A DNA stretch of 18,981 bases from Terramyces sp. JEL0728 (lineage: Eukaryota; Chytridiomycota; Chytridiomycetes; Rhizophydiales; Terramycetaceae), in contig JADIIU010000188.1 in assembly GCA_027603945.1 (NCBI GenBank), forward strand, positions 1 through 18,981. Direction: 5' to 3'. The notes under the pieces were generated by a model. It searched no databases. It was given only the letters and a program-made list of their open reading frames with translations, and was not told where the DNA came from. The position numbers and the translations under genes were made by a program. This document shows, piece after piece, positions 122-18,980 of this stretch. Every line of letters starts with the position of its first letter. Within the stretch, counting starts at the first letter, position 1.

Positions 122-2791
122 TCAGTTTTCGTTCTCACTCACTGGCCATAATTTTGAATTTGGGGTTGGAGTGCTTACAGCAGGACTCAGTGGTGTTGAC
201 TTAATTATATCACTTGGAATTGTACTATCTCTGACAGATGTCTTCTTTTCAAAGGCTGCTGAAGCTCTGTGCGAACGGTTAAATGAGGAAGGAGGTTGAT
301 ATGAATCTTTTTGTGTCGGTTCCGTTTCATTTTCCTTTGGCGATTTTCGCTTCATTCTATTTTCCAATCTCATTCTCTTTTCTTCGCGTTTAAAGTGCTT
401 CTTTAGATAAATAATTTTATGTTTTTGGCCGTATTTTACTTCCTTTACTTCATTTTCTAAAGTATCGATATCGACTCCAAAGAATATTTTTACTCTTCCC
501 ATGCTTTTTGATATATCTGCATCCAAGGAATCTATATGTGGTGCATAGTCTGCGAAAAGCACGGCACTTTCTTTAGCCAATGCTGCAGCCATGCCCATCT
601 TTGTTGACATTGATATATAAGCTACGTCAGTGGCCATATTGATTTCAAACATCAAATACATCCACCAAACATTCATAGAACATACAGCGATCAGGGTGAT
701 TAGCAAAACTTGAACAACAGTCATCCAAATAGATGGTACATTGAAAATTCCAGCGCCAACTTCCCCGTAATACTCACACTGTGCTTTAAGGGATGGGTCA
801 AATTGCATCATCACGTAATGAGCGGGGACAGCAAGAGCGACTGCCACGCCTTTCCACATTTGGTCATCATGGTAATACCCATCTGGCAATGTCCCCTCTG
901 CGAGAACGTTTGAAAATGAAGCGCCTTGACTAGGCTGGTAATCTTGCCCATTATACGCATACTGCAATACCTTTTGATACCTACTCGTAAGGTCATACGT
1001 GTCATCTAAGATAAGAGGCGATTACCGATGAGCTGATCATAAAACTCAATAAACGTACGACCTTTCGAATTACGAGCTTGAATGGTGGACTTTCCCACGC
1101 TGATCTCCTTTACTCCATCGGTTGAAACCATTTCCCACTCGTCATATATAAATGACGTTCTAACATTTCCTTTTCCTATCTTTGTAATGAAGGTGCAAGT
1201 CTGATAAACACCAAATCCAATATCAACATCAGTTTGGATTGAAGCGTTTGGAAGGAACAATGTCAATTCCCCTTCTAGAATATTGCTTGTTTTTGTACTT
1301 TTAGTTAACCAAACTCTGGTAAAGTTGCTAGTGGAATTTAGTGCTGGGGATGGGTAAGCACACGAAGTAAAAATGGCGTACGCAAACCCTTCGCCATTCA
1401 TTGAAAATGAAGAGGACGGATTAGCCATTGGCCAGGAACTCCATCCTCCTATAATACCGTCCTCCAAAGGTATGCCAAATGTATATACCAAAGCAAAATC
1501 AACATCGCCTTGCATAAAATCGCCCAAATTTGTATAAATAGGGGATTCGTACGGATACGTTGCAGGGATACAATGTCCAGTCATGAATAAGGTTTCGGCA
1601 GGAACCCACTGATAATCGAGGGACAAGAATGACAGGAGGACAGCCAAAACAATCGAAATAAAAAATATAAACTGTCGGAGTCTTCCTCCCGGAGCATTGC
1701 TTGCTAAATACCCTGATTGAATATCATTAACCTGCGCACCTTTATGGGCAACCATTGAGCAAATAATCCCCTTGTGGATACACTTGAGCAGCTGATTTCC
1801 ACACATGAACAATAAATGTCCAGATAGAATGGTTCCAATATGAATACCTGTTGATTATTCGAATATTACCATCATAGACGTCAATGCTGTTCAGCAAAAT
1901 TCCTGGAATCAACATGGTGGAAGTAAAGATGAACCCCGTGATAGTGAGAAAGATTAAATATGTGACAATCAACTTGAAACGATAGCTTTCAAAATAGAAT
2001 CTAACTTGGCGGACAACTGGCCGTTCCCAGCATCGGCCTATTTTTTCCCTGGTTTTAGTGATAAAGGTCTTGTCTTCTTCATCTAGCGGTTCGTCGTCAG
2101 AGTTCTCTGATGATGCTCTGCTATTCACGCTTCCGCGCCGTCGTAATCCTGCATTTGAGGCTTTGGAAATTGGATCAATGTCCGCTTGGCTTAGCGATCG
2201 ATTTTGTACAAAAACATCTTCTAATTCTCTGTCAGTAGGCGGTGACAGATTATCCTCTTCTGATAGATGCTTGTCTTTGTTGAAACTCGGACTTTTAGCT
2301 ATCCTTAGTGGCGGAGGAGTAGGTGCTTTATAACCCTGACCAATATCCTTTAGATTATGGTGACTTTTTTTCATTTCTCCATCAACAACCAAGACATCAT
2401 CAGAAAAATGAATAATTTTCTTTTCCAGTTTCAAAGGAGATTTAAGTGAATCTCCAATTGACGATTTGTTGCAATCGTGAGAGTCATTCAGCGGTTGTAA
2501 CTTTGGGAGAGTATTTGAACTGACTGGTATATCCTCTTGAGAGCTTGCTTTCTCCTTTGAAATATTGGGGTAAGCTTGAAGTGTGCTTATCCGCAAACTA
2601 TTATTGCTTTTATCGGGTTCTTTCTTTTGTAGAGAATGCAATGATTTTTCATCCATCCTTTCTAAAATCATTGGCAAATTACCTTCTGATTCAGATCCTA
2701 TATCTGTTTTCAGCGGTTTGCTGAATTCATCGGCAAAGTGAATGCCCTTATGTCTTGCTTCCACAAAATCATTCTTTGGATAGTTCTCCAT
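122..2791 (-). CDS. Multi-pass membrane protein, unknown family (3 exons, ~875 aa)
   Basis: I do not recognise this family. Three open stretches join cleanly when two short introns are removed: 1848-1869 (22 nt) and 1006-1025 (20 nt). Without splicing, each junction would be a stop codon plus a frame change. Residues 1-270 are polar, Ser/Asp/Lys-rich and probably disordered and cytosolic. A helix follows at about 274-297 (core TYLIFLTITGFIF), then a weaker hydrophobic stretch and a helix near 365-385 (FIFFISIVLAVLLSFLSL). Next is a domain of about 280 residues with N-glycosylation sequons (NST, NFT) and several cysteines, likely lumenal or extracellular. A last helix lies at about 675-700 (VVQVLLITLIAVCSMNVW), followed by a basic, charged C-terminal tail. 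This fits a surface or endomembrane protein with a large exposed loop. The ATG at 2791 gives the longest frame; the next methionines would remove about 40 residues. The gene model is firm but the function is unknown. Confidence 0.75.
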
Positions 2792-2812
2792 GACGCGTAA
2801 GTTGTGGAAAAA
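2792..2812. promoter_or_regulatory. Very short divergent promoter with an ACGCGT (MCB-like) site
   Basis: Only 21 bp separate the ATG of the minus-strand membrane-protein gene (2791) from the ATG of the plus-strand 61-aa gene (2813). The gap contains ACGCGT at 2793-2798, the core of the MluI cell-cycle box bound by MBF-type factors in ascomycete yeasts. Whether this organism uses that code is unknown. If both ATGs are right, each promoter must lie inside the neighbouring coding region. Confidence 0.3.
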
Positions 2813-3018
2813 ATGAGGATTAGTAATAATTATGCAATTCCATTCGTTACTCTAGTTACTTTCAGAACTTTCCCATAGTATTTCAGCGATATTCAAGTAC
2901 TGCGCCGTCACTACGATGGATGATATGGTACCTAGTGAAGAAATACACTAAAACACAAGTTGATATTCTCGAGGAATCGCTATATCCAATTGGAGCGCCA
3001 AACGATACGACAGTTTAA
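2813..3018 (+). CDS. Hypothetical 61-aa protein (2 exons)
   Basis: This small gene appears only after splicing. Exon 1 (2813-2877) opens with ATG and reads 21 codons plus two bases. A 20-nt intron follows at 2878-2897, starting GTATTTCAG and ending TTCAAG. Exon 2 (2898-3018) continues without a stop to TAA. Unspliced, the frame stops at the TAG that spans the donor. The product is MRISNNYAIPFVTLVTF... through an aromatic/hydrophobic stretch (LRWMIWYLVKKY, residues about 27-38) to an acidic end. It could be a small single-helix, possibly mitochondrial, membrane protein, but I recognise no family. The branch site is weaker than in neighbouring introns. The stop codon overlaps the T-run that would terminate the opposing tRNA gene. 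Moderate support: an open frame with a plausible intron, but no homology. Confidence 0.45.
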
Positions 3019-3032: not shown

Positions 3033-3035
3033 GAT

Positions 3036-3107
3036 TGGAGGCTAAGGGGATTGAACCCTTGGCTTCTCGCATGCGAAGCGAGCACTCTACCACTGAGTTA
3101 AACCCCC
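3036..3107 (-). tRNA. tRNA-Ala (anticodon CGC)
   Basis: Read on the minus strand, the cloverleaf is complete: acceptor GGGGGTT/AGCCTCC with G-T wobbles, D stem ACTC/GAGT with loop AGTGGTA, anticodon stem CTCGC/GCGAG with loop TTCGCAT (anticodon CGC, reading GCG alanine codons), and T arm AAGGG/CCCTT with loop TTCAATC. The discriminator base is A at 3036, as is usual for alanine. There is no intron. Box A (TAACTCAGTGGTAG) and box B (GGGTTCAATCCC) are intact. Structure, length of 72 nt and a downstream T-run agree. Confidence 0.95.
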
Positions 3108-3195
3108 ACCAGAGCGAGCATCGAACCTGCGCGAGGCTGGCAGGTTTTGCCATTTCAGCCACACACTCCTAAAATTCTAAAAAACCGCTTGCTCT

Positions 3196-3561
3196 TCAAC
3201 ACATTGACGAGAGCATTTCACGATGGGATTGTAATTTTGGTGGATAATTCTCTTTGGGTATGGCACTAAAATCAACTATCAGCTCTTGCCAAGCTTGGCA
3301 ATGCAGTAGAAAAGGCATTGGTTCACTACAGCTACATTCCCATGCAAGAATAGAAAGTTCTTGTTCGATATAACGGCTGTACCCCACATCCCACGAAATT
3401 CGAATCAAAGACTCGTTAATCAACGTGATTCCATAAAAGGTCACGCTGGGACTATAAAAAAACTTTGAATTGCAACAATTTTCAGAAAATTCTACATGAC
3501 CAGTGCAAAAGTTATTGATGGCAAAACAATTGCAGAGTACTATATAATATAACGGTAGCAA
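3196..3561 (-). CDS. Doubtful ORF, 121 codons, unknown
   Basis: An uninterrupted minus-strand frame of 121 codons. The middle and C-terminal parts (about LIRISWDVGYSRYIEQELS to SAIPKENYPPKL) have a protein-like composition with several Trp and Cys residues, but I recognise no family. The first third overlaps exon 1, intron 1 and the TATA box of the C1-THF synthase gene on the other strand, and there is no in-frame ATG downstream of that overlap before the last third. It may be a gene with an unseen 5' exon, a decayed fragment, or a chance frame. Confidence 0.2.
   Translation of the reverse strand: MLPLYYIVLCNCFAINNFCTGHVEFSENCCNSKFFYSPSVTFYGITLINESLIRISWDVGYSRYIEQELSILAWECSCSEPMPFLLHCQAWQELIVDFSAIPKENYPPKLQSHREMLSSMC
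3453..3460 (+). promoter_or_regulatory. TATA box of the C1-THF synthase gene
   Basis: TATAAAAA lies 43 bp upstream of the ATG at 3496. The same spacing (31-47 bp) is seen before the CAP, Ser-rich, epimerase and LicD genes, which supports both the start and a short 5' leader. Confidence 0.6.
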
Positions 3562-6407
3562 AATCCGAGCCAGCCTCGCACTGTCTGTTCAAGGACTTGC
3601 CAAGATTAATATTGTTCCTCAGCTAGCTGTGATCCAGGTTGGCGATCGCCAAGACTCTAGCCAGTACGTTAGAATGAAACAACAAGCCTGTGCAAAGGTA
3701 TTCGTAACCTAATGGCGAGATTGGAATGAAATTCATCCATGAAGTTGTGCCAAATACTATTACTGAGGGATCGTTGCTTAATCTCATAACCAAAATGAAT
3801 GAAGACGATTCGGTTCATGGTGTACTTGTTCAATTACCGCTTCCAGGCCATCTGAATGAAAAAATCATCACCGAAGCCATTTCCCCTCGCAAAGATGTCG
3901 ATGGGTACTTTTTATTAATGTAGTTTCCATGCTGTAAACATCGGAAAGCTAGTAAAGAAAGATTCTTCCCCAGACTTTGTTGCATGCACCCCAAAAGGAA
4001 TCATTGAGCTTTTAAAACACGAAAATGTCGAAATTGCAGGAAAAAGAGCTGTAGTAGTAGGTAGATCCAATATCGTTGGAATGCCAATTTCTCAATTACT
4101 ACAAGCTTTAGATGCTACAGTTACTGTTTGCCATTCTAGAACTGTTGGGATGGAAAACATTGTCAAGGAAGCTGTAATTCGTAAATGTAATGATAGGATA
4201 TTCTTATTGTTGCTGCTGGAGTGCCAAATCTCGTTAAAGGCTCGTGGATCAAGCCTGGCGCTGTAGTCATCGATGTTGGTACCAACTGCGTTGAAGGTAA
4301 TTGCTAATTTAAATTAGATAGCACAAAGAAATCTGGGTTTAGATTTGTTGGAGATGTTGATTACGAAAGCGCATCCCAAGTAGCTTCAATGCTTACTCCG
4401 GTTCCAGGCGGTGTTGGACCAATGACTGTTGCCATGTTGCTCCAGAATACCTTGGAGTCTGCCGAAAAATTCGCAAAGGGTTACAAGGCACCGGTTGAAT
4501 ATCTTTTCCCAGAGCTGAAAACTCCTGTTCCTAGTGATATTGATATTGCAATGGCTCAAACTCCAAAGAATATCCGCAAAATTGCAAATGAATTGGGATT
4601 GAATTCCAGCGAATTCGAGCAATATGGCCCATACAAAGCTAAAGTATCTTTGTCGGTGTTGGAAAGGCTTGGCCATCGTCAAGATGGTAACTATGTAGTT
4701 GTTGCTGGTATTACTCCAACTCCTCTCGGCGAAGGCAAATCCACCACCACTATTGGTCTTGTCCAAGCAATTGGTGCGCATCTAAAGATTCCAGCTATTG
4801 CATGTGTTCGCCAACCTTCCCAGGGACCTACCTTTGGTATTAAAGGTGGTGCTGCTGGCGGCGGCTACTCTCAAGTTATTCCTATGGACGAATTCAACCT
4901 GCACTTGACTGGGGATATCCATGCCGTTGTCGCTGCAAATAACTTGTTGGCTGCTGCGATTGATGCCAGAATGTTCCATGAGGCAACACAGTCGGACAAG
5001 GCTTTATTCGACCGTTTAACTCCTGCAAAGAAAGGTGTTCGCACATTCTCCAAAGTTATGCTAAAGAGATTGCAAAAGTTGGGAATCACTAAAACAAACC
5101 CAGACGATTTAGCCCCTGAAGAACAAACTGCATTCGCAAGATTGGATATTGATCCAGCAACTATCACTTGGCAAAGAGTAATTGACACCAACGACAGATT
5201 CTTACGTAGAATCACAGTTGGCCAAGGACCGCAAGAAAAAGGACACACCCGCGAAACTGGATTTGATATTGCTGTTGCTAGCGAGGTTATGGCTGTGCTG
5301 GCACTAACTACCGACTTGAAAGATATGAGAGAAAGACTAGGGAATATGGTGGTTGCCAGCAACAAGAAGGGCGACCCAATAACTGCAGATGATATCGGCG
5401 TTGGTGGTGCCCTCACTGTTTTGATGAAGGACGCAATCAAGCCTAATGTAATGCAGACATTGGAGGGTACCCCGGTATTTGTCCATGCTGGACCTTTTGC
5501 CAACATTGCCCACGGAAATTCTTCCATCTTGGCCGATAGAATTGCTCTCAAACTGGTGGGAACTGCAGATGAATCTGAACAAAAGGGTTTCGTTGTTACT
5601 GAAGCTGGATTCGGTGCCGATATCGGCATGGAAAAATTCTTCAACATTAAGTGCAGATACTCTGGATTGAAGCCAAACGCTGTAGTTTTGGTCGCCACCG
5701 TCAGAGCGCTTAAATGCCATGGCGGTGGTCCTGAAGTTGTTGCTGGACGTCCACTATCCGAAGTGTACCTTGAAGAAAACGTTGAACTTGTCACTAAAGG
5801 CTGCTGCAACTTGATCAGACACATCCAGAATGTCCGCAAATTCGGTGTCCCAGTCGTTGTTGCAATCAACAGATTCAGCACTGACACTCAGGCTGAAATT
5901 GATGCTATTAAAGCAGAAGCTCTCAGAGCTGGCGCATTTGCAGCTGTTCCAGCCAACCATTGGGCTGAAGCTGGTGCAGGAGCAGTTGACGTAGCTAATG
6001 CAGTAAAGGAAGCATGCGCATCAACTCAAGACTTTAAGTTCTTGTATGATTTGGAATTGTCCATCTACGACAAGATTGAAAAGATTGCCAAAGATTTGTA
6101 TGGAGCCGACGGCATTACCCTTTCACCTCTTGCTCAGCAAAAGGTTGAAACCTACACAAGACAGGGGTTCGCCAAACTACCAATCTGCATGGCCAAGACT
6201 CACTTGTCATTCTCACACGACCCTAAAATTAAAGGAGCGCCAACTGGCTTCACCATTCCAGTTAGAGACATCAGGGCCTCTGTTGGTGCTGGATTCTTGT
6301 ATCCGCTTCTTGGAGATATGCAAACAATGCCTGGCTTATCAACCCGCCCATGTTTCTTTGATGTTGATCTCGACCCAGAAACTGGAAGGGTTTATGGGCT
6401 ATTCTAA
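3496..6407 (+). CDS. MTHFD1: C1-tetrahydrofolate synthase, trifunctional (6 exons, 934 aa)
   Basis: Methylene-THF dehydrogenase / methenyl-THF cyclohydrolase / formate-THF ligase, which interconverts one-carbon folates for purine, thymidylate and methionine synthesis. Exons are 3496-3536, 3559-3697, 3720-3904, 3924-4173, 4197-4296 and 4318-6407. The five introns are 22, 22, 19, 23 and 21 nt, all in the N-terminal third. Exon 1 supplies [13 protein letters not shown], matching the family N-terminus. The dehydrogenase/cyclohydrolase domain covers about 1-300, with catalytic Tyr50 and Lys54 in YVRMK, then [18 protein letters not shown] and [10 protein letters not shown]. The synthetase domain covers about 310-934 and has the ATP loop [11 protein letters not shown] near residue 376, then [12 protein letters not shown], and ends at GLF. 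Length is as in fungal and animal enzymes. No targeting peptide is evident, so the cytosolic (Ade3-like) form is more likely than the mitochondrial one. Donor and acceptor sites restore the conserved frame each time, so this is not a pseudogene. Confidence 0.97.
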
Positions 6408-6411
6408 TTTC

Positions 6412-6876: not shown

Positions 6877-6916
6877 GCTTTTAAGGCTTCAGTGCGTTTT
6901 CCAGAAAATAGATTAA

Positions 6917-7642
6917 ATGTTCGTCAACACCATCGTTTCACTCGCTGTTGTAGCTTCTCAAGTAGCTGCTACTCAAGTTTTCCACCCAGTCTCTCACCTC
7001 GTAAAACGTTCCAAAACCTCGAACGGAGGAACTTACACTTATGGTCCAAACGGAAGACAATGTGTCAACTCTCCAGCTCCAGGAGACATTCCAAAAAGCA
7101 CTAACCCAACTCCAGCAGGCTCTGGAGGTTACGGAAACGCACCAGCTCCAGTTGGTGACGTCTATGCCTCTTTAGCTAACGCTTTGGCCACAATTGATAT
7201 GTCCAAGTACGGTTCTGACGACCAATCCTGCCTTGATATGCACAACTACCTCCGTTCCCTCCTCGGAGTTGGTGCATTGACCTGGAGCAACGACTTGGCC
7301 AACAAAGCCCAACAATGGTCCCAAGTTTGTGCTAACAGCGACACTCTTAAACACTCTGACTTGTCTTACGGTGAAAACGTAGGCATGACTTCTGGAGCCG
7401 CTTACACCTGCGCTTCTGGTGTTAAACGTTGGTTCGAAGAATATAAATTGTACTCTGCTGGTACTCCATCCAACTCTGGCGGTTACGAACTATGGGGCCA
7501 CTTTACTCAAGTTGCTTTCCCAGCTACCCAACAAGTTGGTTGTGGTTTGGCAACTGCTGCTGGAGGTGCACAATACCTTACTTGTGAATATTTCCCTGCT
7601 GGCAACAGTGGTGCTCCAGTTCCATTCGCTTATATGGGTTAA
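6917..7642 (+). CDS. Secreted CAP/SCP-domain protein (PRY/PR-1 type), 241 aa
   Basis: Single-exon gene. Residues 1-19 are a signal peptide (MFVNTIVSLAVVASQVAAT), followed by a short propeptide ending in Lys30-Arg31 (SHLVKR), a Kex2-type processing site. A Pro/Gly/Ser-rich linker runs to about residue 85, and the CAP domain fills the rest. Visible CAP signatures are CLDMHNYLRS with LTWSNDLA, HSDLSYGENVG (the His and Glu of the cavity), GHFTQVAFPATQQVGCGLA and YLTCEYFPAGN. Fungal Pry proteins bind and export sterols and fatty acids, and related proteins in pathogens and parasites act outside the cell; which applies here is not visible. Codon use is strongly biased to a few C/T-ending codons. 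Together with the TATA box and lack of introns, that suggests high expression. Confidence 0.93.
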   Translation: MFVNTIVSLAVVASQVAATQVFHPVSHLVKRSKTSNGGTYTYGPNGRQCVNSPAPGDIPKSTNPTPAGSGGYGNAPAPVGDVYASLANALATIDMSKYGSDDQSCLDMHNYLRSLLGVGALTWSNDLANKAQQWSQVCANSDTLKHSDLSYGENVGMTSGAAYTCASGVKRWFEEYKLYSAGTPSNSGGYELWGHFTQVAFPATQQVGCGLATAAGGAQYLTCEYFPAGNSGAPVPFAYMG

Positions 7643-9098: not shown

Positions 9099-10093
9099 AT
9101 GCCAAACACTACGCAGATCCAGTTTACAGCAATAGAAGATGCAGTAGTACACGTTGCATACATTGTACAAACAGGAGCAATAATCCTATCGTTATTTAAT
9201 ATACATTACGCTGTAACATCTTTCAAAGGGAAGACCTGGTTTCCGTTTCAGTATATGGCATCTGTGCTCAACGTAGTGATCATTGCCGGGAACATAAGCC
9301 AGGCGTTTGTGTTTTTTGGCGGGTATCCACAAACTGGTGCTATGATAGTGTCAAACATCACACATTTTTTCACATGTCTAGTAATATGGCTGGCTGATAT
9401 TGAAACGCTGCGAATGTTGCTTATAGTACTACCTAATTGTTCGACCTCTGCTGTGAATATCATGCAGGCAATTGCAGTGATACTCTCCATTGGTCTGAAT
9501 GGCGGTAACGAGCAACTAATCCTAGCTCTATTATTTAAAGACAGTGTATTTAGCTCTGTTAATGACGACAACTTTTTTGCCCAAGTACTTTTTGCTAACG
9601 TTAGTGGTACGGGACGACTGGCTTGCCCTACAACATCATACTATTTGTAGGGATGTTTGCCAAAGCCGTCTATGTCTGGTATCGCATGAATTCAATACTT
9701 TTAAGCGCAAATTCATTTCAAACGCAGCAGCTAAACAACAAAATGCGATCAACGCTGCGATATCACGCGCTGAATATACTGCTGATTGCCTGTAACCTGG
9801 CCATTTGCATCATATCATTCCAAGTTGACGATTCGATTGCTGGGTCTGTTAGGAACATCATCGGCAAAGATTTCTACTCTTACTCGATATGTCTATTTAC
9901 CATACAACTAAGAATTTACTTAATACTAAATCATACCCTAGGAGTGCTATATGCCGAGTCGGTAAAGATGAACAAGAACAGAGAGACGAAAGCAGATATT
10001 GATGACTACCTGGATGACATGATCAGCCATGTTGAGGTGGGGACTAAATTGGGAGCAGGAACATCCAAATATGAAGGAGAGGAGGACATTTAA
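9099..10093 (+). CDS. Seven-helix membrane protein (2 exons, 324 aa), possible GPCR-like receptor
   Basis: Two open stretches join when the 20-nt intron 9585-9604 (GTACTTTTTGCTAACGTTAG) is removed, giving ...FAQ/WYGTTGLPYNIILF.... Seven hydrophobic segments are visible: near AYIVQTGAIILSL, YMASVLNVVIIAGNI, IVSNITHFFTCLVIW, IMQAIAVILSIGL, YNIILFVGMFAKAVY, ALNILLIACNLAICII and YSICLFTIQLRIYLIL. The short N-terminus carries an NTT glycosylation sequon, and the tail is polar with acidic repeats, so an outside N-terminus and inside C-terminus are likely. The layout fits the many uncharacterised fungal 7TM receptor-like proteins, but I see no diagnostic GPCR motif and no match to the Ste2 or Ste3 classes. 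The ATG at 9099 is chosen as the first in frame; earlier ATGs are out of frame. A poly(A) signal follows at 10115. Confidence 0.7.
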
Positions 10094-10321: not shown

Positions 10322-10687
<366 letters not shown>

Positions 10688-10937
10688 TCCAATCCTTAAT
10701 AAAAAAGAATGTTTTATAAAAGGTTTTGGATTTAAATTGTCAAGAAGGGCAGCCATTCACGGATGATAGAGGCAATCGCAGTCTATCCTGGGCCGAGGTA
10801 AATAAGCTTCAGCATAAAGGTAGAGACTATCCTATTCACAATACCATTCCAATTGGTGGTACCTTGATAAATTCAATAAATAAGCGGCATATGAAAAACC
10901 ATGGGAAATGTGGAAAACAGATCACAATTTTTTCCCA
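10688..10937 (+). other. Spacer with an unexplained open frame (10726-10941)
   Basis: Between RBX1 and UBE2G1 there is a 71-codon open frame with protein-like composition (for example RSLSWAEVNKLQ and YPIHNTIPIGG). It lacks an ATG at its start and ends in a TGA that overlaps the UBE2G1 ATG. A TATAAAAG element is at about 10713. GT...AG pairs of 22 nt occur within it, but no splicing I tried gives a complete gene. It is either a cryptic small gene or the UBE2G1 promoter. Confidence 0.25.
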
Positions 10938-11558
10938 ATGACTGAAGCGCAATCTTCCTTACTGCTCAAAAAACAACTAGCTGGTAATAAAATACTAAAA
11001 AGAATTAACAAAGAAACCAGTCGATGGTTTCAGCGCAGGCCTGTTAGACTCCAATTTATATGAATGGGAAGTAATGATTATAGGACCAGAAGGTAGATTA
11101 ATTCGCTAACAATAGGTATTTATTGCTAATTTAGGCACCCCATACGAAGGAGGGTTCTTTAAAGCGATTTTGACTTTTCCAAATGATTACCCGCAGATGC
11201 CTCCTAAAATGAAATTCACAGTAAGTGTTTGATAATCTAGTCTGAAATCTGGCATCCTAATGTATTTGATTTTAATCGCAGGTTCATACTAACGGTGATG
11301 TTTGTATTTCAATTTTACATGCGCCAGGCGAAGATAAATATGGATATGAAGATGCAAGCGAGCGATGGTTGCCTATTCATACTGTGGAAAGTATTGTGCT
11401 ATCAGTCATCAGCATGCTGAGCGATCCGAATGATCAGTCACCAGCCAACATTGAAGCAGCAGTAAATTTTATTAATGTAGAAACAATGGAGGGAAGATGT
11501 AAAGGAATTTAACCGTAAAGTAAGAAGACTGGTTAGAAAAACCATTGAAGGAGAATAG
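10938..11558 (+). CDS. UBE2G1: Ubiquitin-conjugating enzyme E2 G1 (UBE2G1 type, 166 aa)
   Basis: An E2 that takes ubiquitin from E1 and builds Lys48 chains. Introns are 10984-11002 (19 nt), 11093-11134 (42 nt, best read as abutting introns of 23 and 19 nt), 11221-11240 (20), 11262-11281 (20) and 11462-11480 (19). The product starts MTEAQSSLLLKKQLAEL, close to animal UBE2G1 and unlike UBE2G2. The UBC fold shows GPEGTPYEGG, the HPN motif (79-81), catalytic Cys89 in GDVCISILH, and the acidic loop after it (APGEDKYGYEDASERW) that defines the UBE2G/UBE2R group. It ends in a basic helix. Length is normal. In mammals UBE2G1 works with CRL4 ligases, which contain RBX1, the upstream neighbour here; the functional link in this organism is inference. 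Confidence 0.96.
11093..11134 (+). other. Two abutting introns (23 + 19 nt) with no exon between
   Basis: Between ...GPEG (first base of the Gly codon) and TPYEGG..., 42 nt must be removed. The stretch divides exactly into 11093-11115 (GTAGATTAAT...GCTAACAATAG) and 11116-11134 (GTATTTATTGCTAATTTAG). Each half has its own GT, a GCTAAY branch site 5-6 nt before the AG, and one of the two usual lengths for this window. Removing the first leaves the second at the same exon position and phase. A single 42-nt intron is the alternative, but it would be about twice as long as any other here. Confidence 0.65.
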
Positions 11559-11685
11559 ATTTTAATTTGTTGACTTAATAATAAAAGGATTTGTTATTTA
11601 TCGGTTGACACATTTCAATAACCGCCTGAAATCCACACAAGGTAGAGGAATCAAATGAGGCTCAAGCTCCATACATTTATTAACA

Positions 11686-11922
11686 TTATTCAAATTCCTC
11701 CAAAGTTTTCACAGTCAGCTGCAGAAATTCAAAAAACGAGTAAACCGAAGTCCGCAATTCCTTTAAATTCTCTGAATCAAACTGGATAACCAGGCAACTA
11801 CCGCTTAAATCTAGTGTTTTTGTGCAATGCGATTTGTAATCTCTGTCTACTTGTAACACCTTTCTGCAAATTTCAGCTTGGGCTTTGCTTTTGAATGGGA
11901 TTTCGAGGGTGAGATTGTGCAT
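11686..11922 (-). CDS. PCC1: KEOPS/EKC complex subunit Pcc1 (LAGE3), 78 aa
   Basis: The small dimerisation subunit of KEOPS, which makes the t6A modification on ANN-decoding tRNAs and has roles in telomere upkeep and transcription in yeast. The sequence follows the Pcc1 pattern: LTLEIPFKSKAQAEICRKVL, then a VDRDYK segment, a TLDLSGSCLVIQFDSE beta pair, and the C-terminal helix KELRTSVYSFFEFLQLTV ending at EEFE. The ATG at 11922 starts MHNLTLEIPF, the normal N-terminus for the family, and gives a usual length of about 80 residues. The frame is open a little further upstream but without an ATG. The gene converges on UBE2G1 (127 bp between stops) and diverges from the ciliary gene, sharing 195 bp of promoter. 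Confidence 0.85.
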   Translation of the reverse strand: MHNLTLEIPFKSKAQAEICRKVLQVDRDYKSHCTKTLDLSGSCLVIQFDSENLKELRTSVYSFFEFLQLTVKTLEEFE

Positions 11923-12117
11923 TTGTTGAAAAAAGTAAAGTTGATGGGATGAATTAATACCTGACAAATTATTATATCGACAACAAATCTATTGTGATAT
12001 TTTTAAAAGTAGAGACACCACTGGTACTGCAATTGAATACAACAGTATTTAACTGCATATACAGTAATTTTCAGCTGTCAAATTATGACGTGTGCAACAA
12101 ACAATAACACTTTCCAA

Positions 12118-12705
12118 ATGGCAGATACAAAAAACGACAGGGTCCATAATGCAGTCCATGACGATGCGATATGGTAACTACAGTTAATGCCAGGAGACAG
12201 ACCATCCGCTACGAATCAAATACTGCAAGCAACTGGCAAAAGAACTGGGGTTTCATGCAGCAAGCAATGATTGAAAATGTAACAACAATTAATATAGCAA
12301 AAAATAGCCCAGAAAGAGGATTCACGCAAAGTTTCTCATCGTCCTACCTTGCCTGCCATTACATCTAATGATGGCAGAGTCACCGGACTGCCATCAATCC
12401 TACCGCCAGGATTAGACGATGAAGGTAATGGAATAGTATCGGACTGGATGTACACCTCAAATATCCCTAGGATAATCAAGTACAGGTTTCCTTCAGAAAA
12501 ATACAAGACGCCAACAACTACTTCGCACGAGATTGGCTGGCCGTGGCAAAAAGAACCAATTAAACCTATAAAGAAACCAGGAGTTTCAATTAGTTATAAT
12601 AGAGCTGCTATACCGCAAGCTGACAGCCTGGAAGTGTATGGCAAACACGCGCGAGGACAAGGGGATGTATTGAAATGGTTTGGGGCCAGAGAAGCGCTCC
12701 CATAG
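12118..12705 (+). CDS. C20orf85/LLC1-family ciliary microtubule inner protein (CIMIP1-like, 3 exons, 182 aa)
   Basis: Introns 12174-12193 (20 nt) and 12279-12297 (19 nt) are removed. The spliced N-terminal part reads DDAIWRQTIRYE, then TASNWQKNWGFM, the hallmark of the C20orf85 (LLC1, CIMIP1) family, whose members sit inside axonemal doublet microtubules. Further on come TTTSHEIGWPWQ and, near the C-terminus, LEVYGKHARGQGDVLKWFG, also typical of the family. The first intron interrupts the Trp19 codon inside the conserved IWRQ motif, so homology proves that splice. A gene of this kind is expected only in organisms that build a motile cilium, which makes this window's owner a flagellated (zoosporic) lineage or a recent descendant. 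The family call rests on motif recall, not a search. The stop codon is 19 bp from that of the convergent DUF4286 gene. Confidence 0.8.
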
Positions 12706-12724
12706 TTCCAGAACAAATTAAAGG

Positions 12725-13124
12725 TTAGTTTTTTATTGTTGCCGAAACCATTTTTAGTATTCTTCTTGACGTTACTATGAATCCCCAATGATCTTGTTCT
12801 GCGTGCGCTACAATTCCCTGATGTATTTTTAGATACTCTTCCAAATGCTCTTGGCTGTCTACATGGTAATGAACAGTGAAATAAGCTTTATTAGCTCCTT
12901 CTTCCGATAACCAGTATAACCCAGCTATATTAAAGAAAAGTACTTGGTTTCGGTTGTGAATAAACTACGGCATGTGTGAATCCTGAGACTGTGTCGCTAA
13001 CATTGAGTGTAAACTTTTCCAACCATTCCTGGTATCCATCCGCCTTTTCTTTTGGAATAGAGAGGTTCACTTCGTATATAATTGAATAATCTGGGATTGA
13101 GGCAGTTGAAACTCTCTTTTCCAT
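12725..13124 (-). CDS. DUF4286-family protein (2 exons, 126 aa)
   Basis: After removal of the 19-nt intron 12925-12943 (GTACTTTTCTTTAATATAG), the protein reads IIYEVNLSIPKEKADGYQEW, then SDTVSGFTHAVVYSQ, LYWLSEEGANKAYFTVHYHV and HLEEYLKIHQ. This is the pattern of DUF4286, a small ferredoxin-like (EthD/ABM-like) domain found in many bacteria and some eukaryotes, with no established function. The start at 13124 (MEKRVSTAS) is the in-frame ATG closest to the domain; the frame upstream lacks an ATG. It is mostly known from bacteria, but the intron shows it is an established nuclear gene, whether or not it was transferred. Confidence 0.8.
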
Positions 13125-13466
13125 TTGAAATGGAAAAAATTTCAATCTCCAGCTGCAGAAAGATTCATTTTTGCCTCCAAGTAATCGCAAGTAGATGAGC
13201 TACTATCTTTCGTTTTGAATATGTTTATTTTGGCCTATCTCATTCTATTAAATGGCAAAGATTGCTGGTTTTGAATGGCGAATCTAAGCAAATATTTTGA
13301 ACGGTGATGCAGAGCATGTTGTATGGTTAGAATGGCAATCCGGAGTGCATAAGGAATAGTCGGAATTCAGATGACAAATATTTCGATCCGATGCCCATTA
13401 GTGCGAATCACTTGCAACGACTAGACTGATGAATTGACTTTTTCACATATGCTAGAATTCTAAATA

Positions 13467-13491
13467 GTCATTTAGAGAATGACTGTTCTCT
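13467..13491. repeat. Two overlapping, mutually exclusive hairpins
   Basis: GTCATT (13467-13472) and AATGAC (13478-13483) form one 6-bp stem with a 5-nt loop. AGAGAA (13474-13479) and TTCTCT (13486-13491) form another with a 6-nt loop. They share bases, so only one can form at a time. Confidence 0.5.
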
Positions 13492-13880
13492 GTAATTACG
13501 TCTGGGATCCTTAAAAATAATGAACGGTCAATCAAGTAATGGTTGGCGTGAACAATACTAAATTCTGATTACTTGAATACAATTTCGCGTTGTTAACCCC
13601 ACAGCAATCTTGGAATAGAGTAATATTCGCCAAATAATCCAAATGGCTGGCATAAATCAAATCTTACTACCATATTTGAACACTGAGCACCTAAGCCACC
13701 ATAAATAAACATTTACTAGGGAAAATTTAGTTGACGGTATTGATAGGAGGAATCTCTAAATCTCAATCGGAAAAAACTGGAATGATTGTCGCTGCATTTC
13801 AACTGCGTTTTGATTTATGATGATGTGAAATTGGGGGACTAAACATCCCTTTTTGGGAAACTATGGTGATTGTCCTGGTA

Positions 13881-13900
13881 GGATCGAGTCCCACATTTTT
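13881..13900 (+). other. Box-B-like motif followed by T-run (possible Pol III relic)
   Basis: GGATCGAGTCC (13881-13891) differs by one base from the tRNA box B core GGTTCGAGTCC and is followed by TTTTT at 13896-13900. The T stem would have one A-C mismatch, and no acceptor or D arm can be built around it. It is at most a tRNA relic or a box-B-driven RNA. Confidence 0.25.
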
Positions 13901-13975
13901 ATTTGGGTAACACAATGGAATTCAGACATGTTTTAGCCCTCCCAGCCAAACGAAAAACCTGAAATGAGAGTGGAA

Positions 13976-13983
13976 TAAATATA
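13976..13983 (+). promoter_or_regulatory. TATA-like element of the epimerase gene
   Basis: TAAATATA lies 39 bp before the ATG at 14015. The spacing matches the other TATA-ATG distances in the window and favours this upstream ATG. Confidence 0.45.
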
Positions 13984-14014
13984 CTATGATCCGCTGAATA
14001 CACTTCTGCTGTAC

Positions 14015-15232
14015 ATGCTTGATCTTGGAGATAAATGTGCAAGTGGATACGCATATTCCGCAAGTGGCACAATATGCCCAAAAGTCCATTTAAATATGGA
14101 TTGGAAAAATTTGTCGTCAAATAATTTAATGGCTCCTGCTAACGATTTCGCTCAACAGCTAGAAGGACTACAAGATACTGAAAACTATATCCTGGTAACT
14201 GGCGGTGCTGGGTACATTGGCTCTCACACTGTCCTAGAACTCTTGAATGAGGGTTTCAAAGTCATCGTCGTCGACAATCTCGTCAATTCTACTCAAGAGT
14301 CATTGAACAGAGTGTTAAAGCTCGCTCCAAAAGGTTCTGAACTCCATTTCTTCAAAGTTGACATCTGCAACAAAGCTGACTTGGAAAAGGTCTTTGCAGA
14401 CTTTAAGATTGACGCAGTCATTCATTTCGCTGGTTTGAAGGCAGTCAATGAATCTATTTCTATTCCATTGCGCTATTATACCAACAACATTACTGGGACT
14501 TTGATCCTCCTTGAATGTATGGACACGGTCAATTGCAACAACATTGTGTTTTCTTCCTCTGCTACTGTATACGGAAACCCTGATGGATTCGAGGCTTTGG
14601 ATGAAGCTCAATCCACAGGTCCAATCAATCCGTATGGCCAAACAAAACTAATGGCCGAAGTCATAATTGAAGACTTTTGTAACAGCAAGAAAGTAATGAA
14701 TGCTTCTATCCTCCGTTACTTCAACCCCATCGGTGCTCACGAATCTGGTATTATCGGTGAAAACCCCCTTTTGCCTCCATCCAACTTGCTCCCTTGTGTT
14801 ACCAGGGCCATGTTACATGAAAACAGACCTTTGCACGTTTACGGAGATGATTATGACACTCACGATGGGACTGCTGTCCGTGACTACATCCATGTTGTTG
14901 ACTTGGCTCGTGGCCATGTTGCAGCACTAGAAAAGCTGCTACAAGACTCTCCAGGATGCATGGTCTTGAATATGGGCAATGGCCGAGGGTATTCTGTAAA
15001 AGAAGTTGTCGATCATATGCACAAAGTCACTGGCGTAGCTGTTCCACACATTCTCGCTGCTCGTCGTGAAGGTGACGCTCAATACGTTGTTGCTGATCCT
15101 TCTAAAGCGCTCAAATTGCTCAACTGGAAACCAAAGCATGATCTTACTGCAATGTGTCACTCTGCATGGAAATGGCAATCCAATAATCCCCAAGGATACA
15201 CTACTGTCGATTCTGCAGAGCACAGTCGCTAA
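14015..15232 (+). CDS. GALE: UDP-glucose 4-epimerase, 405 aa
   Basis: Interconverts UDP-galactose and UDP-glucose (Leloir pathway) with bound NAD; also supplies UDP-Gal for glycans. An extended SDR fold with the Rossmann glycine motif TGGAGYIGSHTVLELL, then HFAGLKAVNES, the catalytic SSATVYG serine and YGQTK Tyr/Lys pair, RYFNPIGAHESG, and RDYIHVVDLARGHVAAL. There are no introns. Family members start just before the glycine motif and run about 345 aa. This frame adds about 58 N-terminal residues with no recognisable signal. Starts at 14096 or 14129 would shorten that, but the TATA-like element 39 bp before 14015 fits the longer form. It has only the epimerase domain, without the C-terminal mutarotase of Saccharomyces Gal10. 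A poly(A) signal (AATAAA) lies at 15247. Confidence 0.95.
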   Translation: MLDLGDKCASGYAYSASGTICPKVHLNMDWKNLSSNNLMAPANDFAQQLEGLQDTENYILVTGGAGYIGSHTVLELLNEGFKVIVVDNLVNSTQESLNRVLKLAPKGSELHFFKVDICNKADLEKVFADFKIDAVIHFAGLKAVNESISIPLRYYTNNITGTLILLECMDTVNCNNIVFSSSATVYGNPDGFEALDEAQSTGPINPYGQTKLMAEVIIEDFCNSKKVMNASILRYFNPIGAHESGIIGENPLLPPSNLLPCVTRAMLHENRPLHVYGDDYDTHDGTAVRDYIHVVDLARGHVAALEKLLQDSPGCMVLNMGNGRGYSVKEVVDHMHKVTGVAVPHILAARREGDAQYVVADPSKALKLLNWKPKHDLTAMCHSAWKWQSNNPQGYTTVDSAEHSR

Positions 15233-16027
15233 GCACCTTTTATTCCAATAAATTTCATTCTCCATTAATATACTGACAGGAAACTGCTTAGGAATCAAGA
15301 GTCTTGCCATTTCAAATTTATTGGTAAATCACTGGAAACATGCTTACAAAGGACTGCTGTATCATCAGAAGCAATTGCAGTAGAGCCATTTGATTTAACA
15401 ATCGATCACATCTTGACCGCAATGAGGATGAAATTAAAAATCATGTATGGAATGAAATATAGAACTACTATGGACTATGCAATATTTTGGTTATTCCGGT
15501 ATGATTATTCAACAGTGCCCAATTGCGCGGTATCCATACAAATTCAAATCAAATATTATAATCACCTACTTCATCAATGTAATAATTACCGCAGCACAGT
15601 AAATCAACCCGTCCCCAATACATATTTTCGACCCAATTCGAAAATAGCGGTCAACAAGTCGCCGCTCTAATTTGGCGATTTACCCTGACTATCGTCAATC
15701 AGCCAAAAGGAAAATATACCATAACAAACGACGGCAATCCTCGATATTTATTGATATTTTCAAATATTATTATGATTGAGCATGCAATCTAAGCGCAAAT
15801 TCTCATTATTGATACCCTACAACTCCAGTCTTCTGCGCCAACAAGTAAAAAAATTCCGTGAATATAACTGAATCCCCATCGCTGCTTTTCCTTTTTCAAA
15901 TAATTTTGGTTTTATTACGTCGTACAGGCAATGTTCAGAAGGGATGGGCTGAGATCCCTGCTATATTCGTCAATCAAAAGAGACCGCCCCAGCAATTATA
16001 AAAGCAGCTGAAACCAAGTACACCAAA
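15233..16027 (+). other. Unresolved region with a 134-codon open frame (15267-15670)
   Basis: After the epimerase poly(A) signal, one plus-strand frame stays open from about 15267 to 15670. Its first ATG is at 15413, giving 85 residues from there. Segments such as HFKFIGKSLETCLQ, AVEPFDLTIDHILTAMRM and MDYAIFWLFRYDYS look protein-like but match nothing I know. A possible 22-nt intron at about 15358-15379 would join an ATG at 15339 to the frame, but it lacks the usual branch site. From 15671 to 15990 the DNA is AT-rich and appears non-coding. Confidence 0.25.
15997..16004 (+). promoter_or_regulatory. TATA box of the Ser-rich gene
   Basis: TATAAAAG lies 31 bp before the ATG at 16028, implying a leader of only a few bases. 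Confidence 0.55.
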
Positions 16028-16411
16028 ATGCGATCAATTTCAACCGAGTCGCTATATTCGAATGTTTCAGAGTGCTCCACAACATCCACAATTACACACG
16101 CACCCTCCTTAAGGACGATAACGTCGCTCAGATCAATGAACTCCTTTTCGACAATCAAGACAGATGCAACAATTAAAGACTCGCAGTTTGTATATCCCGC
16201 TTATGCAGAGAGTGAGCCAGACACTGAATTAATGTCGCAGTTTAGTTCCTTTTCATTGCGATCATCCCCATCGATTGCTTCATTCAAATCATCCAGTAGT
16301 GATGAAGAGGACTACATTAGTAGGTATTTTGAATCTGATCCACTGGTCACCATCCAAGATTGTAAAGTAGCTGGCAACCAGTATAGAATTTTAACTGTAA
16401 ATAAACAATAA
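16028..16411 (+). CDS. Ser/Thr-rich low-complexity protein, 127 aa
   Basis: A single-exon frame with a TATA box 31 bp upstream and AATAAA signals at its 3' end (the coding end itself reads AATAAACAATAAA), so a real transcript is likely. The protein is very rich in Ser and Thr (e.g. ECSTTSTITHAPSLRTITS, FSSFSLRSSPSIASFKSSSS), followed by an acidic DEEDYISRYFESD stretch that looks like a CK2-type phosphorylation target, and a short conserved-looking end. It has no signal peptide or membrane segment and is probably disordered. I recognise no family and cannot suggest a function. Confidence 0.6.
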   Translation: MRSISTESLYSNVSECSTTSTITHAPSLRTITSLRSMNSFSTIKTDATIKDSQFVYPAYAESEPDTELMSQFSSFSLRSSPSIASFKSSSSDEEDYISRYFESDPLVTIQDCKVAGNQYRILTVNKQ

Positions 16412-16535
16412 ATCCCTTTATACTTTAGATTCCAGCATTATCCTTGATGTCATAGCGCCAAACAGGAATGGAACCAGGCGGTTAAGGTGCAATGTCATCA
16501 TCTCAGCCTACTGGATAAATATATTCAAATTACAA

Positions 16536-17857
16536 TTATATTACACTGGATATTTCCGTACCGTCACCTCCTTTATACGGAATGCCTATAAAATTCCAAT
16601 TCAACGGCGAATCTATGTTCTCTTTTCTACATTAGCAATTGTTACATCTCTTGTCCCAAGAATCTAATCAGAACCTGGAGATTCAACACTCCTTTTCGCA
16701 AGTCAGTGACCCTTAACCCAACCAAATTCAGCAGCTGTTCAATATCTTTGCTTAGTAAGAAAACGCTGTATTCAAAAGATGGATGCTTGTATAGAGGATA
16801 TCTGCATTAATGAAATGTACTCGCTGACCGGGAATAAAGAAATTGGGTCTTGGATAGAAGATCTTGAAGATTTTAGAGTGATAGGGTATCGTAATGGAAT
16901 ATTCAAGTATACAGAGACCATCACAACCAAGTGCCCAAGATATCCCAAGCCCATCGCTAAATCTTCCTTGGTCCCTTTTGTTATATGAATCGAACGAATG
17001 CAGTCATTCGAAAGTGGGTAAATGTAGTCCAGTTCTTTGATTAGATGCGCCTGCCGTCTATATATCTTGGTGTAAATGGTATGCATTTGTTTTCTACATT
17101 AGCTTGATGTACTTTGTAAGCTCCAGACCAATTCGTGAAGATGATATCACCTGCCGCTGTTTTGCGAGCGAGTTGATCTGCTTTGAAAGCGTCAGCCTCC
17201 TCTCCAACAGCAGCATTTTCTTGCTTGTCAAATCCTGTTTTCTGAAATGTAAATTCTGCGTTTTAAGCAGTAAGTTGGACTCTATCTCTATGACTTTTTT
17301 TGTTGTGATGGGCTAAATAAATTCGCATTTACATTCTACAGTCAGACAATAGGATACAATCGTATCTAATGGCAATTCGTGTACTCTAATTTCCTATTGT
17401 TTATCCCGATATTTACCTCCTCTATATCCTGTTCCAGTATATTCAAAACTTTTCTCTTTTCAATTATCTTGTTCAACTGATCCAGCGTAAATGATCTTGC
17501 AGCTTTCCCCTGGCTACTTCCTTTCCCTATAGTTCCAGATCCAACTGCGACATCCATTTCCACCTCCCCTGCGACGTACAATTTCTGATTAAAACAAAAA
17601 ACCAACTGCTCTTTACAGTCCTCTTTCTTCTCTTTCAACTGACCCAAATCAACAAAATGTGATATTTCCTTTCCATCGTATTTTAGACACAACGAAAACT
17701 GTCCTTGTTGTAAATCAAAAACAAATTTTGGGTTTGCAGTTTTCTTTGCCGTCAGATCCAATGTAGCGGATTTAAATTCAACTCGCAGATTAAATGTAGA
17801 TATTTTGCCCATTTTTCTATATACAACGTATTCAAAATTATTCCTTGTCGGGAACAT
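16536..17857 (-). CDS. UVRAG/Vps38-like subunit of class III PI3K complex II (6 exons, ~404 aa)
   Basis: With Vps34, Vps15 and Beclin 1/Vps30, UVRAG/Vps38 forms the complex that makes PI3P on endosomes. Introns: 17394-17416 (23 nt), 17313-17339 (27 nt, or a split alternative), 17094-17112 (19), 16802-16820 (19) and 16627-16645 (19). Residues 1-110 form a beta-rich, C2-like region. A coiled coil rich in Leu, Lys and Gln follows (about 165-235). The C-terminal BARA-like part is diagnostic: ELDYIYPLSND, AMGLGYLGHLVVMVSVYL, IPLRYPITLKSSRSSIQD, FPVSEYPLYKHPSFEYSVFL and SKDIEQLLNL. The FP...PLY stretch is restored only after removing the 19-nt intron at 16802. The last intron carries the stop of an unspliced frame; removing it adds about 30 residues. 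It starts about 70 bp after the ABC transporter stop. Confidence 0.85.
17313..17357 (-). other. Ambiguous intron region in UVRAG: one 27-nt intron, or 22 + 20 nt around a 3-nt exon
   Basis: Two in-frame solutions exist. One removes 17313-17339 (27 nt, longest in the window, weak branch site). The other removes 17336-17357 (22 nt, CTGAC before the AG) and 17313-17332 (20 nt, starting GTAAATG), leaving only AAT (17333-17335) as an exon. The two proteins differ by five residues before the coiled coil, where homology cannot decide. Confidence 0.4.
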
Positions 17858-17926
17858 TTTGAGATTAGAAGGTTAAAAATCTTTTTGAAAATGCAGTTAG
17901 TTTATTTGCAATTGATTTAATCATAG

Positions 17927-18980
17927 TTACAGTTTATTAGCAATTGCTTTGATTAATACAGCGTTAGCTTCGCCCGTTTCGGCAACCATGCGAGTGAATT
18001 CGCTATCATAGTCTAATAGTGCCTTTGGTGAATCGTATTCTATAATCTCGCCAAAAGATAGAACCATGATTTTATCATAGTCGGCAATGGTATTCAATCT
18101 GTGGGCAATAGTAATGATGGTGGATCCTTGGAAATCTCTTCTGATTGCTGTTTGGATAAATTCATCGGTTGCAAAATCAACTGACGCTGTTGCTTCATCA
18201 AGTAAAATGATTTTCGAGTTTTTCAGCCTGAATTAACAAAGAATTACATTGCTCTGGCTAGACAAATCAATTGTCTTTGGCCAGTGCTCCAGTTTTCGCC
18301 ATTTTCGGCAACAATAGATTCCAATCCCAAAGGTGCTCCTTTCACAACATCGTGCAGGTTGGCTCTCTTTAAAACATCCCAAATCTGATCATCTGGCTTT
18401 AGATTAGTTTACCTTTGTATTCCGAGAATGGATCAAGGTTGAATCTGATAGTCCCTGAAAACAAGACTGGCTCTTGAGGAATCACTGCAAGCTTGCTTCT
18501 TAAATCATGTAACCCAATCTTGCAAGTGTCGACCCCATCAATAATAATATTTCCAGACTCAAACTCAACCATCCTGAGTAACGTTGTGATGATTGTGGAC
18601 TTTCCTGCGCCAGTACGACCTACAATACCAACCTTTTCTCCAGCAGATATGTCAAAAGATACGTTTTTGAGGACCAACGGGAGATTTGGCAAATACCTAA
18701 ACTGCAGATTTCGAACTTGAATGTGGCCATTTTCCGGCCATTGGGGTGTTAATTTCCTTAATTCAATTTGGCCGTCTGCGACACCAAGCTGTTCGACTTC
18801 TTTGGAAACACGTTCCTCCGCAACCACATGAGACTGGATAACTCTAGGTCTTTCCGATTCCAAACTATCAGTATAATATATCATTCTTTCCGCGCTGTTC
18901 ATGTAAGTTTCCACATCAGTAGAGGTCTTGACGACCCAAGTAAAGGTTTGTGTAATTTGAAGCGAGTAGGCAATCAGCAA
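17927..18980 (-). CDS. ABCC/MRP-type ABC transporter, C-terminal part (5' end outside window)
   Basis: This is the 3' portion, 337 residues, of a full-size ABC exporter of the C (MRP/Ycf1) subfamily. It begins at the end of the second membrane domain (YSLQITQTFTWVVK) and the linker (SAERMIYYTDSLESERP). Introns 18393-18412 and 18228-18247 (20 nt each) are removed. The second nucleotide-binding domain is complete: Walker A GRTGAGKST, Q-loop VIPQEPVLFSGTIRFNLDPF (the FNLDPF is typical of ABCC), a signature WSTGQRQLICLARA in place of canonical LSGGQ, Walker B IILLDEATASVD with the catalytic Glu, and H-loop TIAHRLNTI. The second intron splits the gap between signature and Walker B. Members move glutathione or other conjugates across vacuolar or plasma membranes; the substrate is not predictable here. 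Confidence 0.95.

What the first reader, a model, noticed from the sequence alone, without database searches (positions are those of the whole stretch)
122..18980. A genome-wide intron size near the physical minimum: about 30 introns, 20 of them exactly 19 or 20 nt
In eleven different genes, conserved reading frames are interrupted by 19-24 nt GT-AG segments (one 27), counting the abutting pair as two. Lengths: nine of 19, eleven of 20, two of 21, three of 22, three of 23, one of 24, one of 27. Removal restores family-conserved residues (RBX1, UBE2G1, C1-THF synthase, CIMIP1-like, DUF4286, ABCC NBD2). Introns this short are known from chlorarachniophyte nucleomorphs and some ciliates. I know of no well-described case in a fungus-like nuclear genome with ordinary gene content.
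Basis: partly seen in the sequence, partly recalled or inferred. Interest (0 to 1): 0.9.

Follow-up and report, generated by a model that had tools for sequence, protein, structure and literature searches.

The report
A fungus with almost only 20-nt introns
The genes of a chytrid fungus are interrupted almost only by spliceosomal introns of 19-23 bases, among the shortest known, and in a few places two or three such mini-introns sit directly end to end.

Summary
Confirmed. The window is a contig deposited as Terramyces sp. JEL0728 (Chytridiomycota, Rhizophydiales). Of 30 reported introns, 25 are supported here (eight of 19 nt, ten of 20, two of 21, three of 22, two of 23); four more, all in one gene, are uncertain, and the reported 24 and 27 were not recovered. 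Length-neutral tests on the window plus 20 unselected 10-kb stretches show the same sharp peak: 78 GT-AG introns of 19-23 nt against 1-11 for nine false boundary pairs, with no excess of GT-AG introns above 30 nt. Genome-wide, one strict intron motif occurs 5,348 times against 264 for its backward control, suggesting roughly 10,000-18,000 such introns. The branch A sits mostly at position 14 or 15 and the 3' splice site 5-7 nt further on, with no excess at 13. New: abutting mini-introns. Gaps of 42 nt (UBE2G1), 43 nt (HAT1) and 66 nt (dynein heavy chain) divide exactly into 2, 2 and 3 units, each with its own GT, branch site and AG; an 85-nt four-unit case is not settled by homology. I infer unit-by-unit removal by an ordinary-looking major spliceosome restricted to tiny introns. 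No RNA data were available, and U1 and U6 snRNAs were not found.

The parts
1848..1869 (-). 22-nt intron, unknown membrane-protein gene (CDS 122-2791 -)
   Evidence: joins two open frames; no homology test, no Pfam match
1006..1025 (-). 20-nt intron, same gene
   Evidence: joins two open frames; no homology test
3537..3558 (+). 22-nt intron, C1-THF synthase (CDS 3496-6407 +)
   Evidence: 6 of 6 chytrid proteins
3698..3719 (+). 22-nt intron, C1-THF synthase
   Evidence: 5 of 6 chytrid proteins, (the Globomyces model lacks this stretch)
3905..3923 (+). 19-nt intron, C1-THF synthase
   Evidence: 6 of 6 chytrid proteins
4174..4196 (+). 23-nt intron, C1-THF synthase
   Evidence: 6 of 6 chytrid proteins
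4297..4317 (+). 21-nt intron, C1-THF synthase
   Evidence: 5 of 6 chytrid proteins; the Boothiomyces JEL0866 model drops 12 residues here
9585..9604 (+). 20-nt intron, unknown multi-pass membrane-protein gene (CDS 9099-10093 +)
   Evidence: joins two open frames; no homology test, no Pfam match
10358..10378 (+). 21-nt GC-AG intron, RBX1 (CDS from 10322 +)
   Evidence: gapless 89-residue alignment to PDB 8rwz_R
10407..10426 (+). 20-nt intron, RBX1
10538..10557 (+). 20-nt intron, RBX1
10656..10675 (+). 20-nt intron, RBX1
10984..11002 (+). 19-nt intron, UBE2G1 (CDS 10938-11558 +)
   Evidence: weak branch motif (score -1.5)
11093..11115 (+). 23-nt unit of an abutting pair, UBE2G1
   Evidence: 42-nt gap exact by homology; divides as 23+19, 0 of 20,000 shuffles as good
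11116..11134 (+). 19-nt unit of the abutting pair, UBE2G1
11221..11240 (+). 20-nt intron, UBE2G1
11262..11281 (+). 20-nt intron, UBE2G1
   Evidence: the deposited model fuses this and the previous intron into 61 nt and loses SEIWHPN
11462..11480 (+). 19-nt intron, UBE2G1
   Evidence: also used in the deposited model
12174..12193 (+). 20-nt intron, CIMIP1/LLC1-like gene (CDS 12118-12705 +)
   Evidence: PF14945 match (residues 9-170) spans it
12279..12297 (+). 19-nt intron, CIMIP1/LLC1-like gene
   Evidence: PF14945 match spans it
12925..12943 (-). 19-nt intron, DUF4286-like gene (CDS 12725-13124 -)
   Evidence: PF14114 match (residues 15-105) spans it
18393..18412 (-). 20-nt intron, ABC transporter nucleotide-binding domain
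   Evidence: PF00005 match (residues 104-252) spans it
18228..18247 (-). 20-nt intron, same ABC transporter
   Evidence: PF00005 match spans it
16802..16820 (-). 19-nt intron, Vps38/UVRAG-like gene
   Evidence: exact with the Boothiomyces JEL0838 protein; the JEL0866 model differs here
16627..16645 (-). 19-nt intron, Vps38/UVRAG-like gene
   Evidence: exact with JEL0838 and JEL0866 proteins
17094..17112 (-). UNCERTAIN 19-nt intron, Vps38/UVRAG-like gene
   Evidence: strong motif (5.7) and open frame, but relatives and Pfam disfavour the residues that follow it
17394..17416 (-). UNCERTAIN 23-nt intron, Vps38/UVRAG-like gene
   Evidence: weak motif; relatives' models remove 17256-17416 as one 161-nt piece
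17336..17357 (-). UNCERTAIN 22-nt intron, same gene
   Evidence: weak motif; as above
17313..17332 (-). UNCERTAIN 20-nt intron, same gene
   Evidence: as above

Best explanation
These are U2-type (major spliceosome) introns that in this chytrid are confined to about 19-23 nt. Each holds a GTA donor, a YTRAY branch site with its A usually at position 14-15, and YAG 5-7 nt further on. The first step would make a lariat loop of about 14-17 nt with a 5-7 nt tail. The floor at 14 fits a donor hexamer (positions 1-6) and a branch-site heptamer (about 9-15) lying side by side without overlap. Removal proceeds by intron definition, one unit at a time, so abutting units can be cut out one after another through zero-length exons. 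Shown: positions, lengths, motif spacing, genome-wide excess, restoration of conserved proteins, abutting units. Inferred: splicing itself, the lariat, unit-by-unit removal, and that the machinery, not only deletion pressure, limits the length.
For: Exact homology in C1-THF synthase, UBE2G1, RBX1 and at one dynein heavy chain site. Length-neutral peak with false-boundary controls. 154 of 190 introns are 19-23 nt with a length-flat motif model; 211 of 222 units in 24 stretches, 3 of them chosen. Motif grid. Whole-genome motif 5,348 against 264. No excess of GT-AG introns above 30 nt: 40 against 28-41, and 16 against 12-18, for eight false pairs. U2 snRNA with GUAGUA. U2AF-large-like and SF1 genes present, themselves modelled with 19-20 nt introns. 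Abutting units in UBE2G1, HAT1 and dynein.
Against: No RNA evidence. U1 and U6 snRNAs were not found (the pattern was mis-made). Donor +5 G, normally favoured (recalled), is only 16% of 211. Branch-A assignment: 149 of 154 at 14-17, but 4 at 11 and 1 at 19. Abutting units: at unit score above 0 the reversed control has 4 pairs, the sample 1 pair, 1 triple and 1 quadruple, so pairs alone are not in excess. One 161-nt gap in the Vps38/UVRAG-like gene does not divide into units and may be an ordinary intron.
Confidence: 0.92

Rival explanations
1. Ultrashort introns are real, but each abutting set (42, 43, 66 nt, perhaps 85) is one longer intron removed in one step; the inner motifs are relics of tandem duplication.
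For: Three units of the 85-nt set share TAATCTCCAG, so duplication happened. The deposited UBE2G1 model uses the 42-nt piece as one intron. Two of the three homology-checked sets (HAT1, dynein) were found by searching for abutting motifs, so their divisibility is not an independent test.
Against: Units of the 42-, 43- and 66-nt sets differ in sequence, yet each keeps GT, a branch site and AG; for all four sets 0 of 20,000 shuffles divide as well (not corrected for the search that found them). No class of single introns above 30 nt is detectable.
Confidence: 0.25
2. A small class of ordinary long introns exists beside the ultrashort ones and was missed.
For: The 161-nt gap in relatives' models with better Pfam score. 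The test cannot exclude a few real cases within its noise; UTR introns were not tested.
Confidence: 0.3
3. Assembly errors, pseudogenes or retained insertions; the segments are not removed.
For: No RNA data.
Against: Conserved core genes, exact frame restoration, fixed motif spacing, thousands of cases.
Confidence: 0.02
4. Non-spliceosomal removal (programmed DNA excision or ribosomal bypassing).
For: None found.
Against: GT-AG ends plus a YTRAY site at fixed spacing, U2 with GUAGUA, U2AF-like and SF1 genes.
Confidence: 0.02

Closest known systems
Introns of Stentor coeruleus, 15-16 nt (PMC9505925: outline and parts 1-2 of 6 read)
   Same: GU-AG ends, AU-rich, nearly one length, branch A at a fixed position (10th or 11th) with a 5-nt tail, U2 with GUAGUA
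   Different: Here 19-23 nt, branch A at 14-15, a clear YTRAY site (weak in Stentor), a fungus, abutting units
Mikrocytid introns, 16-17 nt, 224 in Mikrocytos mackini (PMC10245619: passages)
   Same: Very short, narrow length range
   Different: A parasite with a reduced spliceosome and few introns; here a chytrid with thousands
Chlorarachniophyte nucleomorph introns, 18-21 nt (as cited in PMC10245619)
   Same: Nearly the same lengths
   Different: A relic endosymbiont nucleus; here the nucleus of a fungus
Trichomonas vaginalis short introns, minimum 23 nt (PMC12316389: passages)
   Same: Short introns, branch site near the 3' end
   Different: Intron-poor, with a second, longer class
Stwintrons and recursive splicing at zero-length exons (recalled, no call)
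   Same: Intron units removed in succession
   Different: Stwintrons are nested and known recursive sites lie in long introns; here 19-23 nt units abut

Membership tests
U2-type (major) spliceosomal introns | GT-AG (or GC-AG) ends | tested here: met
   one GC-AG at 10358-10378
U2-type (major) spliceosomal introns | YURAY-like branch site at constrained distance from the 3' end | tested here: met
U2-type (major) spliceosomal introns | U2 snRNA with GUAGUA in the same genome | tested here: met
U2-type (major) spliceosomal introns | U1 and U6 snRNA genes in the same genome | tested here: inconclusive
   none found with Rfam models or patterns; sensitivity and assembly gaps unknown
U2-type (major) spliceosomal introns | U2AF large subunit and SF1 genes | tested here: met
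   the six-frame U2AF hit (251.7 bits) is under the curated cut-off (310.3), being read through introns
U2-type (major) spliceosomal introns | removal from RNA with a lariat | not testable with these tools
   no RNA data
Ultrashort-intron genomes (heterotrichs, mikrocytids, nucleomorphs) | one narrow length peak at or under about 25 nt | tested here: met
Ultrashort-intron genomes (heterotrichs, mikrocytids, nucleomorphs) | no ordinary-length intron class | tested here: inconclusive
   no excess over false boundaries; one unresolved 161-nt gap
U12-type (minor) introns | U12 snRNA and long conserved donor | not tested
   U12 was not searched; AT-AC served only as a false-pair control (10 in 19-23 nt)
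Stwintrons | an internal intron interrupts a splice signal of an outer one | tested here: not met
   units abut and each holds complete signals

The most novel reading that the evidence does not exclude
Quantised introns: the spliceosome of this fungus accepts only units of about 19-23 nt, an upper as well as a lower limit. Intervening sequence therefore grows and shrinks in whole units, and every longer insert is a train of mini-introns cut out one at a time through zero-length exons.
Probability: 0.35. Interest if true: 0.93.

Novelty: new variant of a known kind. Interest (0 to 1): 0.85.

Why it matters
Introns this short were known from a few ciliates, mikrocytids and nucleomorphs. A chytrid with thousands of them gives a fungal system, in the order of Batrachochytrium, in which to ask how small a lariat the spliceosome can make and what limits intron length. 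The motif grid acts as a ruler: branch A at 14-15, 3' splice site 5-7 nt on. With 5-7 nt between branch A and 3' end there is no room for an ordinary polypyrimidine tract, yet a U2AF-large-like gene is kept. Abutting units would be a direct test of recursive splicing without exons. It also warns that deposited proteins from such genomes can be wrong: the two from this contig that I saw both are.

Tried and rejected
Longer GT-AG introns as a second class: the length-flat finder predicts some (32 of 190 at 31 nt or more), but false boundaries give as many, and only 1 of those 32 divides into units. The weak introns in the Vps38/UVRAG-like gene: left uncertain. The 85-nt four-unit set in dynein: homology does not decide between it and a 79-nt gap ending at the third unit (43.1 against 43.4 bits for the best chain; one search also chose 35+23+21 there), so I lowered the novel case from 0.40 to 0.35 and no longer count it as homology-checked. 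U6: two sub-threshold hits (27 bits) lack the conserved U6 core and contain a 20-21 nt intron motif; four one-mismatch pattern hits are not U6; one exact partial hit is coding. Abutting pair in L015 (33+20): not checked.

Literature: ten searches of the held library listed no report of ultrashort introns in chytrids. Most subscription papers are not held, perhaps including the source paper of this genome, so absence from print is not shown. PMC9505925: outline and parts 1-2 of 6; PMC10245619, PMC12316389, PMC8371127, PMC11210171: passages; all others: listings only.
Full report
Identity. The window is contig C188 of a 15,016,339-base, 231-contig assembly. Its C1-THF synthase is 96% identical to that of Boothiomyces sp. 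JEL0866, then 80-81% to other chytrids, Globomyces, Gorgonomyces and Batrachochytrium among them. Two deposited proteins listed with a contig of 18,981 bases, the length of this window, are named Terramyces sp. JEL0728 (P0123; P0127); P0127 agrees with my UBE2G1 at 153 of 153 aligned residues, with 13 residues missing. Taxonomy: Chytridiomycota, Rhizophydiales, Terramycetaceae.

Window introns. I modelled 29 introns in nine genes and count 25 as supported. Spliced UBE2G1 aligns to PDB 6d68_A over 164 residues with two single-residue gaps, neither at an intron; spliced RBX1 aligns to 8rwz_R over 89 residues without a gap. A spliced aligner that allows any length from 14 to 250 nt recovers the same introns from chytrid proteins made by other annotators (4-400 nt). 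Four introns of the Vps38/UVRAG-like gene remain uncertain. One RBX1 intron is GC-AG.

Genome-wide test. Twenty stretches at the fixed place 20001-30000 of every fifth contig (C1 to C96) and the window make 218,981 bases. A gene finder with nothing but GT..AG and flat lengths places 78 of 139 introns at 19-23 nt; the same finder with nine false boundary pairs places 1-11 there. With donor and branch weights but still no length preference, 154 of 190 are 19-23 nt (35, 62, 29, 21, 7), none is 18 or 24. A count of the bare motif GTA..YTRAY..YAG against reversed sequence shows the excess at branch-A position 14 (128 against 44) and 15 (90 against 36), with the 3' end mostly 5 or 6 nt on. Across the whole genome GTAAN{6,7}YTRAYN{1,2}YAG occurs 5,348 times, its backward form 264 times. 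Since 44 of 154 modelled short introns fit that strict form, the excess implies about 17,800 introns; scaling the gene finder's 154 gives about 10,600. A later run on 24 stretches, 3 of them chosen (L040 to continue the dynein gene, L041 and L042 because the list was dense there), gives 211 of 222 units at 19-23 nt.

Longer introns. With short introns allowed, GT-AG introns of 31-250 nt number 40, against 28-41 for eight false pairs; with a stiffer penalty 16 against 12-18. So no ordinary class is detectable in coding sequence. This does not exclude a few; the 161-nt gap in the Vps38/UVRAG-like gene is a candidate.

Abutting units. The UBE2G1 gap of 42 nt is two complete introns end to end. 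A search for such neighbours (unit score above 2) found 5 pairs at distance 0 and 2 in all at distances 1-12, from three places. In a dynein heavy chain gene a 66-nt stretch is three units of 22, 23 and 21 nt, and its removal aligns FHATV-G-FIADTG to cytoplasmic dynein without a gap. The same gene has four abutting motifs over 85 nt, but there homology does not decide. In a HAT1-like gene a 43-nt stretch is 20+23; removing it restores a frame that matches HAT1 on both sides, with a 4-residue length difference just downstream. Shuffled versions divide as well in 0 of 20,000 trials for each of the four. Limits: HAT1 and dynein were found by looking for abutting motifs, so they do not test how often longer gaps divide; and plain pairs at a weak threshold are no commoner than in reversed sequence, where however no triple occurs.

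Machinery. U2 snRNA carries the usual GUAGUA. A U2AF-large-like protein and an SF1-like protein are encoded, with 19-20 nt introns of their own. U1 and U6 were not found, which I leave open. Donor consensus is GTAATT-like: +5 is G in 16%, T in 45% of 211. U12 and the minor spliceosome were not tested.

Mechanism. Branch A at 14-15 leaves six donor positions and about six branch-site positions side by side, which would explain the floor of 19 (14 plus 5). Stentor manages 10 plus 5 (PMC9505925), so this is a lineage-specific setting. That abutting units keep full signals after diverging suggests each is still used. Whether the machinery also has an upper limit is the boldest reading and needs RNA.

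Deposited models. P0127 fits gaps of 37, 42, 61 and 19 nt and lacks 6 and 7 residues of the E2 domain, ELTKKP and SEIWHPN; P0123 departs from its relatives after residue 147. The Boothiomyces JEL0866 proteins lose residues at two sites where Terramyces has 19- and 21-nt introns, which hints that Boothiomyces shares them. No relative's DNA could be read here.

Noticed in passing
window 10938-11558 and 16627-17857: Two deposited proteins of this contig (UBE2G1, 153 aa; a 213-aa fragment of the Vps38/UVRAG-like gene) are mis-spliced.
   Followed up: yes
genome G000: No U1 or U6 snRNA found by Rfam models or patterns, although U2 is present with GUAGUA.
   Followed up: partly
211 short introns in 24 stretches: Donor +5 is G in only 16% and T in 45%; the usual +5 G preference is absent.
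   Followed up: no
window 10358-10378: A 21-nt GC-AG intron in RBX1.
   Followed up: yes
window 17256-17416: A 161-nt stretch that relatives' models remove as one intron and that does not divide into 19-23 nt units.
   Followed up: partly
L023 and L024, near 1501-1606: Two similar loci that hit the U6 model weakly hold the same intron-like motif in 21- and 20-nt versions.
   Followed up: no
L013 minus strand, positions 8613-8698 of the reverse complement: Four abutting intron motifs in a dynein gene, three sharing TAATCTCCAG; homology does not settle the boundaries.
   Followed up: partly
Boothiomyces JEL0866 proteins P0001, P0122: Residues are missing at sites where Terramyces has 21- and 19-nt introns, hinting at shared ultrashort introns.
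   Followed up: partly
window 3035-3108: tRNA-Ala gene, minus strand.
   Followed up: no
window 6917-7642, 7681-8652, 11686-11988, 14096-15232: Genes read without introns: CAP-family protein, LicD-family protein, Pcc1-like protein, nucleotide-sugar epimerase.
   Followed up: no
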